This document shows positions 23,705 to 30,111 of a stretch of DNA of 41,183 nt, in pieces. The number at the start of each line of letters is the position of its first letter. Within the stretch, counting starts at the first letter, position 1. This stretch comes from Candidatus Nitrosopumilus sp. (GTDB lineage Archaea; Thermoproteota; Nitrososphaeria; Nitrososphaerales; Nitrosopumilaceae), in NCBI GenBank assembly GCA_029863275.1, contig JAOTVS010000011.1, positions 1-41,183 of the forward strand. Reading direction: 5' to 3'. Below the pieces are notes generated by a model. It saw only the letters and a list, made by a program, of their open reading frames with translations. It was not told the origin of the DNA and did no database searches. The translations under genes and the position numbers were made by a program.

Positions 23705-24301
23705 GTGGTAAATATGAAATCAAGAAAAAGTTCCATTAATCGCAACACAAAAGAAACTAGTATTTCTGTCTCAGTAAATCTAGATGGCACAGGAAAAACT
23801 ACAATTAAAACTGGAATTAATTTCCTTGATCATCTAATTGTATCTTTTGGAAAACACTCAATGATCGATCTAAAGGTTAATGCCAAATCAAATGACAAAA
23901 TCGAGCACCACTTGATTGAAGATACTGCAATCACTATTGGAATGGCAATTGACAAAGCTTTGGGAAATAGATCTGGAATTACTAGATTCAGTTATGCATC
24001 TGTTCCAATGGATGAATCCTTAGCAGAGGCATCAATTGATCTAGTAAAAAGACCATTTTGGAAATTGATCTTATCAATTAAAAGAAATAAGATTGAAGAT
24101 GTATCCAAAGAAGATTTAGAACATTTCTTTCAATCATTACTTCAAAACCTAAACTGCTGTATTCATCTTACTGTAAAGTATGGGGATAATGATCACCACA
24201 AGGCAGAAGCTGCAATAAAATCATTGGCAGTTGCTATTAGATTTGCCTCATCATATGATAGGAAACAAAAAGGTATCCCAAGTACAAAGGGTTCTATGTA
24301 A
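23705..24301 (+). CDS. hisB: Imidazoleglycerol-phosphate dehydratase
   Basis: Dehydrates imidazole glycerol phosphate to imidazole acetol phosphate with manganese. The protein is the monofunctional form (198 residues from GTG). Metal-binding motifs of the two half-repeats are [11 protein letters not shown] with H68, H69 and E72, and [14 protein letters not shown] near 162-175. [12 protein letters not shown] near 40-51 is also typical. An alternative ATG at 23714 would remove three residues. It has no fused phosphatase domain, unlike enterobacterial HisB, in keeping with the separate HAD gene immediately upstream. Its stop shares a base with the hisH ATG. Confidence 0.96.
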
Positions 24302-24909
24302 TGGTAAGTGTAGCAATATTTGATTATGGAGCTGGAAATATTTTCAGTCTAAAAAATTCACTTGAAAAAGTGGGAGCTACTGTTGATGTTATTACGACTT
24401 TTGATAACCCAAATCATTATTCAGGTCTTTTACTTCCTGGAGTGGGTAATTTTGATCCAGCTATACAAAGTATTCATGAACACTCTAAAATAGATTTCAA
24501 AGATTATGTAAAAGACAATACTCCTGTTTTAGGAATTTGTTTAGGAATGGAGATGTTTTTTGAGAAAAGTGAAGAAGGTCAGGAACAAGGATTAAACGTA
24601 ATCTCAGGAGAAGTAATAGAACTTCCATCAGGTATGAAGATACCACATATGGGTTGGAATAACTTGGAGATCAAAAAATCAGGAAAAATACTTGAAGGGG
24701 TAAATGATGGTTCTTGGGTATATTTTGTTCATTCATTTCGAGTAAAACCTTCATCTGCTGATATTATCACTGCCGAATCTGATTATGGGATTAAGGTCCC
24801 TGCTGTTATAGAAAAAGACAATTTTTTTGGAACCCAATTTCATCCTGAAAAATCAGGCAAAGTGGGAAGCATAATGATTCAAAATTTCCTAAATGAGTGT
24901 AAAAAATGA
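24301..24909 (+). CDS. hisH: Imidazole glycerol phosphate synthase, glutaminase subunit
   Basis: Supplies ammonia from glutamine to HisF. The 202-residue class I amidotransferase has PGVGNFD near residue 46, the nucleophile C80 in GICLGMEMF, and the H181/E183 pair in TQFHPEKSG. HMGWN (~116-120) and VYFVHSF (~140-146) are family-typical contacts. All catalytic residues are present. It overlaps hisB by one base and hisA by 4 nt. Confidence 0.97.
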   Translation: MVSVAIFDYGAGNIFSLKNSLEKVGATVDVITTFDNPNHYSGLLLPGVGNFDPAIQSIHEHSKIDFKDYVKDNTPVLGICLGMEMFFEKSEEGQEQGLNVISGEVIELPSGMKIPHMGWNNLEIKKSGKILEGVNDGSWVYFVHSFRVKPSSADIITAESDYGIKVPAVIEKDNFFGTQFHPEKSGKVGSIMIQNFLNECKK

Positions 24910-25613
24910 AGATAATCCCTGCAATTGACATAATGGATGGCATGGTAGTACGACTCTACAAAGGCGATCCCAAACAAAAAACAATCTATAGTGACAATCC
25001 GATAGACATTGCCAAAAAATGGGAACAAAATGGCGCTGACATGCTTCATATTGTAGATCTTGATGCTACATTAGGAATTGGGTCAAATTTGTCTTTAATA
25101 AAAAAAATAATACAAAATGTTTCAATTCCAATAGAAGTTGCAGGAGGTCTAAGAGACGAATCAATAGTTATGGAAACTGCACAAATCTCAACAAGGGTTG
25201 TAATAGGCACATTGGCATTTAAAGACACAAACACTATGGAAAAAATACTTCAAAATTTAGGTCCTAAAAAAATTGTAATCTCAGTTGATCATAAAGATGG
25301 TGAAATTGTAACACATGGATGGCAAAAAGAAACAGGAATTAAATTAATCGATGCTATAAAAAAATTTCTTGAGATGGGATTTTCTGAATTTCTTTTAACT
25401 AATGTTAATCGTGATGGAACCCTTGAGGGACCCGATTTAAAATTTTTAGAGCAAGCATGTAATTTAAAAAATGCAAATGTAATTGCAAGCGGGGGAATCT
25501 CAAATATAAAAGACATACAAGATGTTAAAGAAAAAAAATCATTTGGAGTAATACTAGGCAAGGCCTTGTATGAAAATAAAATTTCAATACAGGAGGCAAA
25601 AAAAATAGCATGA
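24906..25613 (+). CDS. hisA: ProFAR isomerase
   Basis: A 235-residue TIM barrel that isomerises the aminoaldose ProFAR to PRFAR. It begins MKIIPAIDIMDGMVVRLYKGD with the catalytic Asp in AIDI. The phosphate-binding half-barrel motifs AGGLRDES near residue 79-86 and ASGGISNIKDI near 195-205 are present, as is the second catalytic Asp region NVNRDGTLEGPD near 165-176. It is related to hisF next door, and the two motif sets keep them apart. It overlaps hisH and hisF by 4 nt each. Confidence 0.96.
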   Translation: MKIIPAIDIMDGMVVRLYKGDPKQKTIYSDNPIDIAKKWEQNGADMLHIVDLDATLGIGSNLSLIKKIIQNVSIPIEVAGGLRDESIVMETAQISTRVVIGTLAFKDTNTMEKILQNLGPKKIVISVDHKDGEIVTHGWQKETGIKLIDAIKKFLEMGFSEFLLTNVNRDGTLEGPDLKFLEQACNLKNANVIASGGISNIKDIQDVKEKKSFGVILGKALYENKISIQEAKKIA

Positions 25614-26413
25614 CTCTAACAAAAAGAATTATTCCATGCCTTGATGTCAAAAATGGAAGAGTAGTAAAAGGTCTTAGATTTAAATCAATTAAAGACGCAG
25701 GTGATCCCGTTGAGCTTGCAAAACAATACAGTGATGAAGGAGCAGACGAATTAGTTTTTTTAGACATTACAGCATCTGAGGAGCAACGCGAAACGATAAA
25801 GAAATTGGTAAGAAAAGTAGCATCTGTTATCAACATTCCCTTTACAGTTGGAGGGGGTGTAAAATCATTAGAGGATGCTCGAAATATTTTACTTAATGGT
25901 GCAGATAAAGTAGGCATTAACACCACTGCTGTAAAAAACCCAGAAATCCTTACCGAACTGATGAAAATTTTTGGGCGACAATGTGTAGTAGTGGCAATTG
26001 ATGCTAAAAGAAATTATGATCTCAAAGAAAACATCAATATATTTACAGAAAATGGCAAAAAGTTTTGGTTTGAGGTTTTCATTTTTGGCGGAAAAAAAGA
26101 GACGGGAATCGACGCTATAGAATGGGCAAAACAGGCACAAAAATTAGGAGCAGGGGAAATTCTCCTTACCAGCATTGATAAAGATGGAACCAAAGATGGG
26201 TATGATATTTTACTTACCAAAGAAATTGTAAACTCTACCTCAATTCCTGTAATTGCATCAGGAGGTTGTGGAAAACCTGATGATATGGTCCAAGTATTCA
26301 GAGAATCAAATGTAGATGCAGCCCTGGCAGCTTCTATATTCCATTTTCAGACTCATGGCGTAAATGGTGTCAAGCGGTATCTTAAGGACAAACAAATTCC
26401 TGTAAGGTTATAA
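25610..26413 (+). CDS. hisF: Imidazole glycerol phosphate synthase, cyclase subunit
   Basis: A 267-residue TIM barrel that uses HisH-derived ammonia to make imidazole glycerol phosphate and AICAR. It starts with RIIPCLDVKNGRVVKG, the catalytic Asp in CLDV. Further marks are VGGGVKSLEDA near residue 82-92, AIDAKRN near 128-134, TSIDKDGTKDGYD near 182-194 and ASGGCGKPDDM near 218-228. AICAR feeds back into purine synthesis. hisI follows after 22 nt. Confidence 0.97.
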   Translation: MTLTKRIIPCLDVKNGRVVKGLRFKSIKDAGDPVELAKQYSDEGADELVFLDITASEEQRETIKKLVRKVASVINIPFTVGGGVKSLEDARNILLNGADKVGINTTAVKNPEILTELMKIFGRQCVVVAIDAKRNYDLKENINIFTENGKKFWFEVFIFGGKKETGIDAIEWAKQAQKLGAGEILLTSIDKDGTKDGYDILLTKEIVNSTSIPVIASGGCGKPDDMVQVFRESNVDAALAASIFHFQTHGVNGVKRYLKDKQIPVRL

Positions 26414-26435
26414 AACACAAGATTAGAAACTTGTT

Positions 26436-26765
26436 ATGGAAAAATCCGTTGATGATATAGATTTTAAAAAAAGTGGAGGGTTGATTCCAATAATAGTTCA
26501 AGATGCAAACACCAAAGACGTCTTAACATTGGCATATTCCAACAAAGAATCACTTGAATTAACAAAAAAAACCGGAAATTCATGGTTTTGGAGTCGCTCA
26601 AGAAATAAACTTTGGATGAAGGGAGAAGAATCAGGTAATACTCAAAAGGTAAAAGAAATTCTAGTTGATTGTGATTTAGACGCAATTATTTATCTCGTAG
26701 AGCCATCAGGACCAGCTTGTCATACTGGTAAGAGAGTTTGTTTTCATAATAATTTAGAAAAATAA
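26436..26765 (+). CDS. hisI: Phosphoribosyl-AMP cyclohydrolase
   Basis: Opens the purine ring of PR-AMP. The 109-residue protein is the monofunctional form. Metal ligands are visible as DCDLD (D78, C79, D80, D82), and C95 and C102 in ACHTGKRVC. The fingerprint SWFWSRSRNKLWMKGEESGN near residues 49-68 is standard. No HisE (phosphoribosyl-ATP pyrophosphohydrolase) domain is fused, and the next gene is on the opposite strand 2 nt after the stop. HisE must therefore be elsewhere. It is the last gene of the his operon. Confidence 0.96.
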   Translation: MEKSVDDIDFKKSGGLIPIIVQDANTKDVLTLAYSNKESLELTKKTGNSWFWSRSRNKLWMKGEESGNTQKVKEILVDCDLDAIIYLVEPSGPACHTGKRVCFHNNLEK

Positions 26766-27553: not shown

Positions 27554-28768
27554 TTGAGTAGAACTTCATTGCAATGCAGAGAATGCAAAAAGGAATATGA
27601 AACTGCATTCAAATACATTTGTGATGAATGTTTTGGGCCACTTGATGTAAAGTATAATTTTCCAAAGATTTCAAAAAATACGTTTTCTAATCGTGAGCAT
27701 ACCTACTGGAGATATTTTGAATTACTGCCAATAGAGGACAAATCAAATATCGTAAGCATTAGTGCCGGAATGACACCACTTATCAGAGCAGACAAGCTTG
27801 GAGAAAAATTGGGACTCAAGAATCTTTATATCAAAAATGATTCTGTAAATCCAACATTTTCATTCAAAGATAGGCCTGCAGGCGTTGCAATATCTAAAGC
27901 AAAAGAATTTGGATTATCTGCAGTTGGATGTGCCTCCACTGGTAATTTAGCATCAGCTACTGCAGCTCATGCTGCAAAAGGCGGATTTCCATGTCATATT
28001 TTTGCGCCAAGCGATATTGAAATGGCAAAAATAGCACAGGCATTATCATATGGTGCAAATTACATTGCAGTTGATGGAACATATGATGATGCAAATAGAA
28101 TAGCTGCGCAAATTGGTGACAGTAAAGGAATAGGAATTGTAAATATTAACATGCGTTCCCACTATGTTGAAGGCTCAAAAACCTTAGCCTTTGAAGTTGC
28201 AGAACAACTTGACTGGCAAGTACCTGATCAACTCATAGTTCCTGTAGGAAGTGGTGCAATGCTTAATGCTATTTGTAAGGGATTCGAAGAGCTACAAACA
28301 GTTTCGTTATTGGATAATGTATCAAATATGCACATGATAGCAGCACAACCACATGGATGTGCTCCCATCGTTGATGCATTTAAAAAAAATAGCAAGGATG
28401 TAATTCCAGTTGAAAACCCAGATACTATTGCAAAAAGTTTAGCCATAGGTGATCCTGGAGATGGCAGGTATGTACTCAAAAGATTACAACAGTACAATGG
28501 CTTTGCCGAAGAGTGCAATGATAAAGAAATTTTAGATGCTATACTACTTTTAGCACAAACAGAGGGTATCTTTACAGAGCCTGCAGGGGGCGTTTCAGTA
28601 TCTGTCTTGCAAAAGATGGTAGAGCAGGGGAAAATTGATTCTGGCGATAAAGTAGTGTGTTATGTGACTGGAAATGGGCTTAAAGCAACTGAATCTATCA
28701 TGCAAGTATTGCAAAAACCAAAGGTACTCAAGGCAGATGTAGCTGAAATATCGGCGGTAGTAAACTAG
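27554..28768 (+). CDS. thrC: Threonine synthase family PLP enzyme
   Basis: A fold-type II PLP enzyme of 404 residues expected to convert O-phosphohomoserine to threonine. An N-terminal zinc finger has cysteines 8, 11, 23 and 26. The PLP lysine is K105 in NPTFSFKDRPAG. CASTGNLASATAAHAA near residue 135-150, PVGSGAMLNAI near 232-242 and the late EPAGGVSVSVL are typical. The start is TTG, preceded by a weak purine-rich AAGGGGA. The stop is only 2 nt from the MoaD-E1 fusion gene. This pairing suggests coupling to a sulfur-carrier system, so a related sulfur amino acid reaction is an alternative (inference). Confidence 0.93.
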   Translation: MSRTSLQCRECKKEYETAFKYICDECFGPLDVKYNFPKISKNTFSNREHTYWRYFELLPIEDKSNIVSISAGMTPLIRADKLGEKLGLKNLYIKNDSVNPTFSFKDRPAGVAISKAKEFGLSAVGCASTGNLASATAAHAAKGGFPCHIFAPSDIEMAKIAQALSYGANYIAVDGTYDDANRIAAQIGDSKGIGIVNINMRSHYVEGSKTLAFEVAEQLDWQVPDQLIVPVGSGAMLNAICKGFEELQTVSLLDNVSNMHMIAAQPHGCAPIVDAFKKNSKDVIPVENPDTIAKSLAIGDPGDGRYVLKRLQQYNGFAEECNDKEILDAILLLAQTEGIFTEPAGGVSVSVLQKMVEQGKIDSGDKVVCYVTGNGLKATESIMQVLQKPKVLKADVAEISAVVN

Positions 28769-28770
28769 TC

Positions 28771-30111
28771 ATGGCCACCATTACATTTACAATTCCATCT
28801 GTACTAAATCAAGGTGCAGGAGAAAAGAAAACTGAAATCTCAGCTGACACTTTATTAGATGCTTTTGCAAAAATCTCTGAGGTATTAGGTGACGATTTTA
28901 AACGCCGAGTATTAGAAAATGATGGCACTCCACGTTCTCTGATTAATATTTACATTAATGGAAAAAATGCAAAATTTTCAGACGGAATGGATACTTCACT
29001 TAATGATGGTGATGATGTGTATATTTTACCTGCAGTAGCTGGCGGTTCTGGTGAGTTATCCTCAAAAGAACTTGATAGATTTTCCCGTCAAGTAATGCTT
29101 GAAGAAATTGGATATCAGGGACAACTAAAGTTAAAAAATAGTAAAATTTGTGTTGTGGGAGTTGGTGGCCTTGGAAACCCTATAACATCTCGTCTTGCAG
29201 CAATGGGTGTGGGTACTTTGCGTATAGTTGATAGAGATGTAATTGAATTATCGAATTTGCATCGACAGACAATGTTTGATGAAGATGATGTTGGTCAAAT
29301 CAAAGTTGAAGTTGCAGCAAAAAAATTACAAAAACTAAACCCTGACTGTAAAATTGAATCCCTAGCAGTTTCAGTTAATGATTATACCGCACTTGAAGTA
29401 ATTGAAGGATGTGATGTTGTAATTGATGCACTAGATAGTGTCAATGCACGATATGCATTGAACAAGGCCTGTGTGAAATTCAATATTCCATTTGTTACTG
29501 GGGCTGCAGTTGGGGTATCTGGTCAAGCATTTACAATTCTCCCTAAAACTAGTGCTTGCTATTATTGCATGTTCCCATCATTAGATGAGGATTCAATGCC
29601 CACATGTAGCATTGAGGGCGTTCATCCATCAATTCTATCAATTATTGGTGGAATAGAGGTTGCAGAAGCAGTCAAAGTGGTTTTAGGAAAAAAACCAAGT
29701 CTCTCTGAGAAAATACTACATGTAGATATTGAAAACCTTGACTTTACTACCACTAGAACATTTAGGGCAGAAGAATGTCCAGTTTGTGGAACCGGCACAC
29801 CTGAGCAAGTAGTAAAAGAAGAACTAATTCTCGAAGAACTCTGCGGAAGAAACAGAGGAAAAAGAACCTTCTCAATTACCCCAACTAGTACATTTGATCT
29901 CGACGTTGATTCTGTGACTGGAATCGCAAAGGAAAAGGGATTCCTAATTGATAATCAGGGTCAGTTGGGGTTATCCTTAAGGACAAATGAACTGTCAGTT
30001 AGTTTCATGAAAAAGGGTTCTGCCGTAATCGTTGGACCAAAAGATGAGGCAGATGCAATTTCTCTTTACAATGAGTTGTTGGGAAAAACTCTCTCAAAAC
30101 CTGCAAATTAA
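28771..30111 (+). CDS. MoaD/ThiS-like ubiquitin fold fused to E1-type adenylyltransferase (MoeB/ThiF)
   Basis: A 446-residue fusion. Residues 1-92 are a beta-grasp sulfur-carrier domain ending PAVAGG, the diglycine (91-92) being internal rather than C-terminal. Residues ~100-345 form a MoeB/ThiF/UbaA-type E1 with GVGGLG (130-135), RDVIELSNLHRQ, the zinc pairs CYYC and CPVC, and the thioester cysteine region MPTCSIEGVHP. Residues ~350-446 are an extra alpha-beta domain, not a rhodanese. Such enzymes adenylate a carrier Gly-Gly end for sulfur transfer in molybdopterin, thiamin, cysteine or tRNA thiolation. The fused carrier needs cleavage after GG to be used, or acts in cis. It follows thrC by 2 nt. 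Confidence 0.92.
   Translation: MATITFTIPSVLNQGAGEKKTEISADTLLDAFAKISEVLGDDFKRRVLENDGTPRSLINIYINGKNAKFSDGMDTSLNDGDDVYILPAVAGGSGELSSKELDRFSRQVMLEEIGYQGQLKLKNSKICVVGVGGLGNPITSRLAAMGVGTLRIVDRDVIELSNLHRQTMFDEDDVGQIKVEVAAKKLQKLNPDCKIESLAVSVNDYTALEVIEGCDVVIDALDSVNARYALNKACVKFNIPFVTGAAVGVSGQAFTILPKTSACYYCMFPSLDEDSMPTCSIEGVHPSILSIIGGIEVAEAVKVVLGKKPSLSEKILHVDIENLDFTTTRTFRAEECPVCGTGTPEQVVKEELILEELCGRNRGKRTFSITPTSTFDLDVDSVTGIAKEKGFLIDNQGQLGLSLRTNELSVSFMKKGSAVIVGPKDEADAISLYNELLGKTLSKPAN

What the first reader, a model, noticed from the sequence alone, without database searches (positions are those of the whole stretch)
27554..30111. thrC coupled to a ubiquitin-like/E1 fusion with an internal Gly-Gly
Seen: a MoaD/ThiS-like domain ending PAVAGG (residues 91-92) is fused in frame to a complete MoeB/ThiF-type E1 and an extra C-terminal domain. 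The gene begins 2 nt after a threonine-synthase-family gene. Known: E1 enzymes of this group adenylate a free C-terminal Gly-Gly; sulfur-carrier systems for cysteine or homocysteine are found beside PLP enzymes in some bacteria. Inference: the carrier is either released by a protease (for example a JAMM type) or used in cis. The PLP enzyme may accept sulfur from it, making this a sulfur amino acid module rather than plain threonine synthesis.
Basis: partly seen in the sequence, partly recalled or inferred. Interest (0 to 1): 0.7.

Follow-up and report, generated by a model that had tools for sequence, protein, structure and literature searches.

The report
Threonine-synthase look-alike with ubiquitin-like sulfur carrier
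In ammonia-oxidizing archaea, a gene labelled threonine synthase has lost the signature residues of real threonine synthases and is locked in an operon with a ubiquitin-like sulfur carrier fused to its activating enzyme, so it probably makes a sulfur amino acid, perhaps the homocysteine for which these organisms have no recognised enzyme.

Summary
thrC1 (27554-28768) is followed after 2 nt by a Ubl-E1-C-terminal-domain fusion (28771-30111) with an internal PAVAGG. The fusion itself is published (2010, 2024). Its link to this thrC was in no paper I could search. The pair is adjacent in 79 of 80 related loci (the exception is cut by its contig). In deeper relatives it is three genes, thrC1-Ubl-E1, with the Ubl usually ending exactly at Gly-Gly and sulfite reductase plus TusA following in four loci. 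One family member has re-split the fusion exactly after Gly-Gly. All 92 Ubl-linked ThrC1 share motifs (STGNL, R[PS][YH]YxEGSKT, SLAIGxPxDG) that six canonical threonine synthases lack. The genome holds a second, canonical thrC, one true E1, two JAMM proteases, and no free-standing Ubl that I could detect. No sampled Nitrosopumilaceae genome has the DUF39 homocysteine enzyme or a convincing Cys/Met-metabolism PLP enzyme. Best reading: the fusion is cut after Gly-Gly, the carrier is thiocarboxylated, and ThrC1 uses it to make a sulfur amino acid, most likely homocysteine, possibly cysteine. Substrate, cleavage and sulfur transfer are inferred, not shown. Seven genomes lack the module and any true E1, so it is not universal.

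The parts
27554..28768 (+). thrC1: fold-type II PLP enzyme annotated threonine synthase. PLP Lys105 (27866-27868); diagnostic changes STGNL (residues 128-132), RSHYVEGSKT (201-210), GSGAM (232-236), SLAIGDPGDG (295-304)
28771..30111 (+). Ubl-E1-CTD fusion gene (446 aa)
   Evidence: structure model
28771..29046 (+). Ubiquitin-like (CysO/SAMP1-like) domain, residues 1-92, ending PAVAGG
   Evidence: PF02597; NF041918 SAMP1, below its cutoff; Mtb CysO 3dwg E 1.4e-10; alignment A2
29041..29046 (+). Codons of Gly91-Gly92: inferred processing and activation site (GG|S)
   Evidence: invariant in 81 of 81 fusions; pLDDT below 50 at residues 89-94, a flexible junction; free C-terminus in split relatives
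29053..29805 (+). MoeB/ThiF-type E1 domain, residues 95-345: Zn cysteines 263, 266, 336, 339; Cys279 aligned to the ThiF 'rnCrtaGV' cysteine
   Evidence: alignment to ThiF 1zfn; invariant columns in 40 E1s; Foldseek to ThiF and MoeB
29824..30081 (+). C-terminal domain (residues 352-437, called TBP-like by Makarova and Koonin), with invariant Cys358, Gly416, Tyr433
   Evidence: (PRK12475 covers 102-438)

Best explanation
This is a protein-thiocarboxylate sulfur-transfer module. The fused precursor is cleaved after Gly92, most likely by one of the genome's JAMM metalloproteases (inferred). The E1 part adenylates the free Gly-Gly end and it becomes a thiocarboxylate, with sulfur ultimately from sulfite reduction (inferred from family knowledge and gene context). 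ThrC1, a threonine synthase paralog with altered substrate and PLP-phosphate loops, uses the carrier thiocarboxylate as nucleophile on an activated amino acid. The likeliest product is homocysteine, from O-phosphohomoserine or another activated homoserine (about 0.4); cysteine from O-phosphoserine is the main alternative (about 0.2). Shown: architecture, conservation, motif divergence, gene context, presence and absence in genomes. Inferred: cleavage, protease identity, thiocarboxylation, substrate and product.
For: thrC1-Ubl adjacency in 79 of 80 family loci and in all 12 split-gene or distant loci where thrC1 was found, with E1 adjacent or close in most; split Ubls mostly end at GG/GGG. thrC1-Ubl-E1-sulfite reductase-TusA in L124-L127, with homoserine dehydrogenase inside the L124 operon. 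An actinomycete has a ThrC1-like gene (44%) followed by a free Ubl ending PAVAGG, besides its own Mec-CysO-CysM cluster. G141 re-split the fusion exactly after GG; its E1 lies elsewhere without a Ubl. Motifs: 92/92 Ubl-linked vs 0/6 canonical; each group is one side of a branch, 87/87 and 99/97. Second thrC with canonical motifs. HcyBio 0/31; Cys_Met_Meta_PP hits at most 38 bits, partial, and the top own hit is really DegT (356.6 bits). Relatives carry tails after GG, and C. subterraneum JAMM processes SAMP precursors (PMC6043591). MoaX must be cut at GG|S to work (PMC4326299).
Against: No biochemical evidence. ThrC1 still passes the curated thrC cutoffs. Seven genomes (G068, G125, G128, G132, G133, G144, G145) lack thrC1, Ubl-E1 and any true E1; those also sampled for homocysteine enzymes have neither HcyBio nor a convincing MetY. 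So either they are auxotrophs or another homocysteine route exists. The two JAMM genes are not linked to the module and persist without it (G068). Homoserine dehydrogenase is in the operon in only one relative. Two other PALP enzymes (CysM-like L005, 525-aa L008) could supply cysteine or homocysteine.
Confidence: 0.6

Rival explanations
1. The module makes cysteine: ThrC1 acts on O-phosphoserine with the Ubl thiocarboxylate, as CysM-CysO does in Mycobacterium tuberculosis.
For: The Ubl matches CysO (E 1.4e-10) and shares the PAVAGG end with a bona fide CysO. From general knowledge, a ThrC-family enzyme (cysteate synthase) has moved to O-phosphoserine.
Against: The genome already has a CysM-like enzyme (259 bits to cysM) without a Ubl beside it. 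The cysteate synthase profile scores only 81 vs 325. The actinomycete has both CysO-CysM and ThrC1-Ubl, which argues for a different product. L124 has homoserine dehydrogenase in the operon.
Confidence: 0.2
2. The Ubl-E1 fusion is a general sulfur relay or protein modifier (tRNA thiolation, SAMPylation), and ThrC1 is its modification target or a mere operon partner.
For: It is the only true E1 in the genome. Dual-use Ubls are known in archaea (SAMPs; PMC4443979 and PMC11323500 found, abstracts only).
Against: Seven genomes have no true E1 at all yet the ones examined keep Ubl-Cgi121. In G141 the Ubl stayed with thrC1 while E1 moved away. ThrC1's diverged motifs are not explained by modification.
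Confidence: 0.15
3. ThrC1 is an ordinary threonine synthase and the neighbourhood is operon convenience.
For: Passes TIGR00260 and PRK08197 cutoffs; nearest solved structures are threonine synthases, best 2zsj E 5.9e-69.
Against: A second thrC with canonical motifs is present; motif differences are absolute, 92/92 vs 0/6; adjacency to a Ubl extends from archaea to an actinomycete.
Confidence: 0.12
4. The Ubl is never released: it works in cis or is a structural or regulatory part of the E1, and a different free carrier is charged.
For: The junction is short, one to three residues before the E1 helix, and its length is nearly constant in 80 of 81. Bacterial Ubl-ThiF fusions that accompany a free ThiS are described in PMC1779556.
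Against: No free GG-ending Ubl was found in the genome. The free Gly-Gly is ancestral and re-evolved in G141. A carboxyl in a peptide bond cannot be adenylated.
Confidence: 0.1

Closest known systems
CysO-CysM-Mec cysteine pathway (Mycobacterium tuberculosis)
   Same: CysO-type Ubl with PAVAGG end beside a fold-type II PLP enzyme; a JAMM protease of related type in the genome
   Different: PLP partner is ThrC-type, not CysM; Ubl is fused to E1 (a separate protein there); the JAMM is not in the operon; both clusters coexist in one actinomycete
Wolinella HcyS protein-thiocarboxylate methionine pathway (from own knowledge; mentioned in PMC5764234)
   Same: Carrier-fed synthesis of homocysteine is the proposed logic; sulfite reductase, TusA-type protein, Ubl and E1 clusters are listed in PMC1779556 Table 1 row 4e
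   Different: The PLP enzyme there is an O-acetylhomoserine sulfhydrylase (Cys_Met_Meta_PP), which is absent here; ThrC paralog instead
Ubl-E1-TBP fusion of Thaumarchaeota (Makarova and Koonin 2010, PMC2948915); MoaD-MoeB fusion, 61 of 98 Thaumarchaeota (PMC11237513)
   Same: This is that fusion
   Different: Those texts do not mention the threonine synthase link, the split ancestral operon or the re-split in G141
MoaX, the MoaD-MoaE fusion of M. tuberculosis (PMC4326299)
   Same: Internal GG followed by Ser; in MoaX cleavage between Gly82 and Ser83 is needed for activity
   Different: Fused partner is MoaE, not E1

Membership tests
Threonine synthase (ThrC, TIGR00260) | Curated profile cutoff | tested here: met
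   299 vs 167 bits
Threonine synthase (ThrC, TIGR00260) | Canonical motifs STG[ND]T and EGQKT shared by solved threonine synthases | tested here: not met
   STGNL and EGSKT in 92 of 92 Ubl-linked copies; canonical form in 6 of 6 references including the genome's own second thrC
Threonine synthase (ThrC, TIGR00260) | Conversion of O-phosphohomoserine to threonine | not testable with these tools
   needs enzyme assay
MoeB/ThiF-type E1 | ThiF domain, four zinc cysteines, catalytic-position cysteine | tested here: met
   PF00899 E 1.3e-72; C263, C266, C336, C339, C279 invariant in 40 E1s; ThiF and MoeB top Foldseek hits
CysO-CysM-Mec system | CysO-type Ubl ending in Gly-Gly | tested here: met
   3dwg E 1.4e-10; PAVAGG; the Gly-Gly is internal here
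CysO-CysM-Mec system | CysM-type PLP enzyme beside the carrier | tested here: not met
   partner is ThrC-type
CysO-CysM-Mec system | JAMM (Mec) gene in the cluster | tested here: not met
   two JAMM genes lie on other contigs, C8 and C14
HcyS-type methionine pathway | O-acetylhomoserine sulfhydrylase partner (Cys_Met_Meta_PP) | tested here: not met
   only partial hits up to 38 bits in 31 genomes; own top hit is DegT
Released sulfur carrier (ubiquitin-like precursor) | Cleavage after Gly-Gly to a free carrier | not testable with these tools
   needs mass spectrometry; indirect support from tails in relatives and the re-split in G141

The most novel reading that the evidence does not exclude
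ThrC1 plus the Ubl thiocarboxylate is the missing homocysteine synthase of ammonia-oxidizing archaea: the first threonine-synthase-type enzyme fed sulfur by a ubiquitin-like protein, with homologous pairs from archaea to actinomycetes that databases call threonine synthase.
Probability: 0.35. Interest if true: 0.8.

Novelty: new variant of a known kind. Interest (0 to 1): 0.62.

Why it matters
Ammonia-oxidizing archaea are very abundant and pure cultures grow without vitamin supplements (PMC4303638); published surveys give them B12-dependent methionine synthase (PMC4303638, PMC8397731), but no recognised homocysteine-forming enzyme was found in the 31 genomes sampled here. If right, a gene family annotated as threonine synthase is really a carrier-fed sulfur amino acid synthase, which fills a pathway gap and corrects annotation in archaea and some bacteria. 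Price et al. 2018 (PMC5764234) state that at least one more homocysteine pathway remains to be discovered; this is a concrete, testable candidate.

Tried and rejected
Methionine synthase MetE (PF01717) as a discriminator failed: it is absent from the window's genome and present in only 8 of 41, with no match to presence of the module. The idea that the JAMM genes are dedicated to this module was rejected: E1-less genomes such as G068 keep two. Ubl-Cgi121 as a substrate of this E1 is weakened: its Gly-Gly is kept in genomes without the E1. The 814-aa frame around the Ubl in G134 was a spurious open frame in GC-rich DNA, not a larger fusion. Plasmid-borne thrC genes of about 35% identity have no Ubl annotated beside them in the three checked and lack the ThrC1 motifs. 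The thrC1/Ubl-E1 co-occurrence (28 genomes with both, 5 with a truncated thrC1 match, 8 with neither) is not independent evidence, since neighbours fall into the same assembly gaps. PDB sequences in the motif table were taken from the phmmer alignments.

Full report
Observation. The window holds thrC1 at 27554-28768 and, 2 nt later, a 446-aa gene at 28771-30111. The second gene has a ThiS/MoaD-type Ubl domain ending PAVAGG at residue 92, a complete ThiF/MoeB-type E1 and a C-terminal domain. The genome is 1.76 Mb, 99% complete, and its relatives are Nitrosopumilaceae, ammonia-oxidizing archaea.

What was known. Makarova and Koonin 2010 report 'Ubl-E1-TBP in Thaumarchaeota' (PMC2948915) and a 2024 fusion survey reports MoaD-MoeB in 61 of 98 Thaumarchaeota (PMC11237513). 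Neither main text links the fusion to threonine synthase: 'threonine synthase' is absent from the first, and its single mention in the second is a cysH-thrC fusion in Thermoplasmata. That second point is an independent hint of thrC-type enzymes in sulfur assimilation. Literature searches for a thrC-Ubl link found none in the held library, which misses most subscription journals.

Conservation. In 80 loci from other genomes thrC1 directly precedes the fusion in 79, with gaps of -1 to +9 nt; the last locus is cut by its contig. Gly91-Gly92 are invariant in 81 fused proteins and the next residue is Ser in 99%. The AlphaFold model has well-folded Ubl, E1 and C-terminal domains, and pLDDT is below 50 at residues 89-94, the Gly-Gly junction. 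The E1 part resembles E. coli ThiF and MoeB.

Ancestral state. Deeper relatives in the phylum have separate genes in the order thrC1, Ubl, E1. The Ubl there usually ends exactly at GG or GGG; in one family (f9) it carries short variable tails after GG (for example GGGNPSIF, GGGILKSQ), as expected of precursors that need trimming. In L124-L127 sulfite reductase and TusA follow E1, and in L124 homoserine dehydrogenase lies between Ubl and E1, with a cysteine-desulfurase-like gene and a DsrE gene upstream. One member of the window's own family, G141, has gone back: thrC1 is followed by a free 92-residue Ubl ending PAVAGG-stop, and its E1 is on another contig without a Ubl (L158, L164). These facts indicate that the functional carrier ends at Gly92 and belongs with ThrC1.

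Beyond archaea. The actinomycete Nonomuraea gerenzanensis has a ThrC1-like gene (44% identity, same motifs) followed by a free Ubl ending PAVAGG (L149). Elsewhere the same genome has a Mec-CysO-CysM cluster (L147). So ThrC1-Ubl is a separate module from CysO-CysM.

ThrC1 is not a standard threonine synthase. Numbered as in Thermus thermophilus 1uim, all 92 Ubl-linked copies have Leu for Thr88, Ser for Gln164, Ser for Asn188, Ala for Arg242 and R[PS][YH]Y before EGSKT. All six references (five solved threonine synthases and the genome's own second thrC) have Thr88 and EGQKT. The Ubl-linked set and the canonical set each fall on one side of a branch (87/87 and 99/97), although thrC2 and the plant enzyme are long branches. 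That these positions lie in the substrate-binding and PLP-phosphate loops of fold-type II enzymes is established family knowledge, not tested here. ThrC1 still passes curated thrC cutoffs, so annotation pipelines will call it threonine synthase.

Genome inventory. There is one true E1; the second PF00899 hit is below the cutoff, and its 390-aa reading frame resembles a malic-type enzyme by eye. There are two Ubl domains above cutoff: this one and a Ubl-Cgi121 fusion, both with internal GG. A sensitive profile adds only a weak 160-aa protein without GG. Six PALP enzymes: a threonine dehydratase (assigned by eye), ThrC1, a CysM-like enzyme, a second thrC, TrpB (by eye), and a 525-aa cysteine-synthase-like protein. 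Two JAMM proteins both carry HxHx7Sx2D; one is related to desampylase and to PDB JAMM1.

The homocysteine gap. HcyBio (DUF39) is absent from 31 of 31 family genomes. Cys_Met_Meta_PP gives only partial hits up to 38 bits, and the best own hit is a DegT aminotransferase (356.6 bits). Published work gives AOA a methionine synthase, mostly the B12-dependent type (PMC4303638, PMC8397731), and pure cultures grow without vitamin supplements. No recognised homocysteine-forming enzyme was therefore found, and ThrC1 is the best-placed candidate.

Mechanism proposed. Translation of the fusion; cleavage after Gly92, probably by a JAMM (C. subterraneum JAMM cleaves SAMP precursors, PMC6043591; MoaX needs cleavage at GG|S, PMC4326299); adenylation and thiocarboxylation by the E1; transfer of sulfur by ThrC1 to an activated homoserine or serine; hydrolysis or recycling of the carrier. 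Only the anatomy, conservation and context are shown.

Limits. In a sample of 41 family genomes, 28 have both thrC1 and the Ubl fusion (split in G141), 5 have a truncated thrC1 match without the Ubl, and 8 have neither. Seven of those eight have no true E1 and one has only a divergent E1. They also lack known homocysteine enzymes where sampled, so the module cannot explain homocysteine in every member of the family. Assembly gaps remove neighbouring genes together, so co-absence alone is weak evidence, but two genera each lack it in both genomes sampled. The homoserine link rests on one operon. Confidence: carrier-fed sulfur amino acid synthase 0.6, homocysteine specifically 0.4.

Noticed in passing
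G000:C80:56324-57097 (L010:1465-2238): Ubl-Cgi121 (KEOPS) fusion with internal HGG followed by Ser; Gly-Gly is kept even in family genomes that have no true E1, so its role there is unexplained.
   Followed up: partly
window 29842-29844 (Cys358 of the fusion): A cysteine in the C-terminal domain (LCGR motif) is invariant in all 40 aligned E1s, fused and split; possible thioester or persulfide site.
   Followed up: no
G000:C87:25943-26869 (L008): 525-aa PALP protein matching cysteine synthase profiles in two stretches, all below cutoff; function unclear.
   Followed up: no
L132-L135, Ubl C-termini: Free Ubls of one related family carry short variable tails after GG, typical of precursors needing a protease.
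   Followed up: partly
G129:C142:3660-4049 (L167): A divergent E1-like 400-aa protein in a genome lacking the module; family unknown.
   Followed up: no
L013, L055, L042: MAG records titled Nitrosomonas or Robiginitomaculum carry clearly thaumarchaeal contigs: mislabelled or mixed bins.
   Followed up: no
G000:C67:365-847 (L157): 160-aa protein with a weak N-terminal match to the Ubl profile (20 bits) and no Gly-Gly; similar weak hits in two other family genomes; no Pfam family.
   Followed up: partly
window 23705-26765: A run of histidine-biosynthesis-like genes lies just upstream; a hisI-like gene also precedes thrC1 in G141 (L158:393-734).
   Followed up: no
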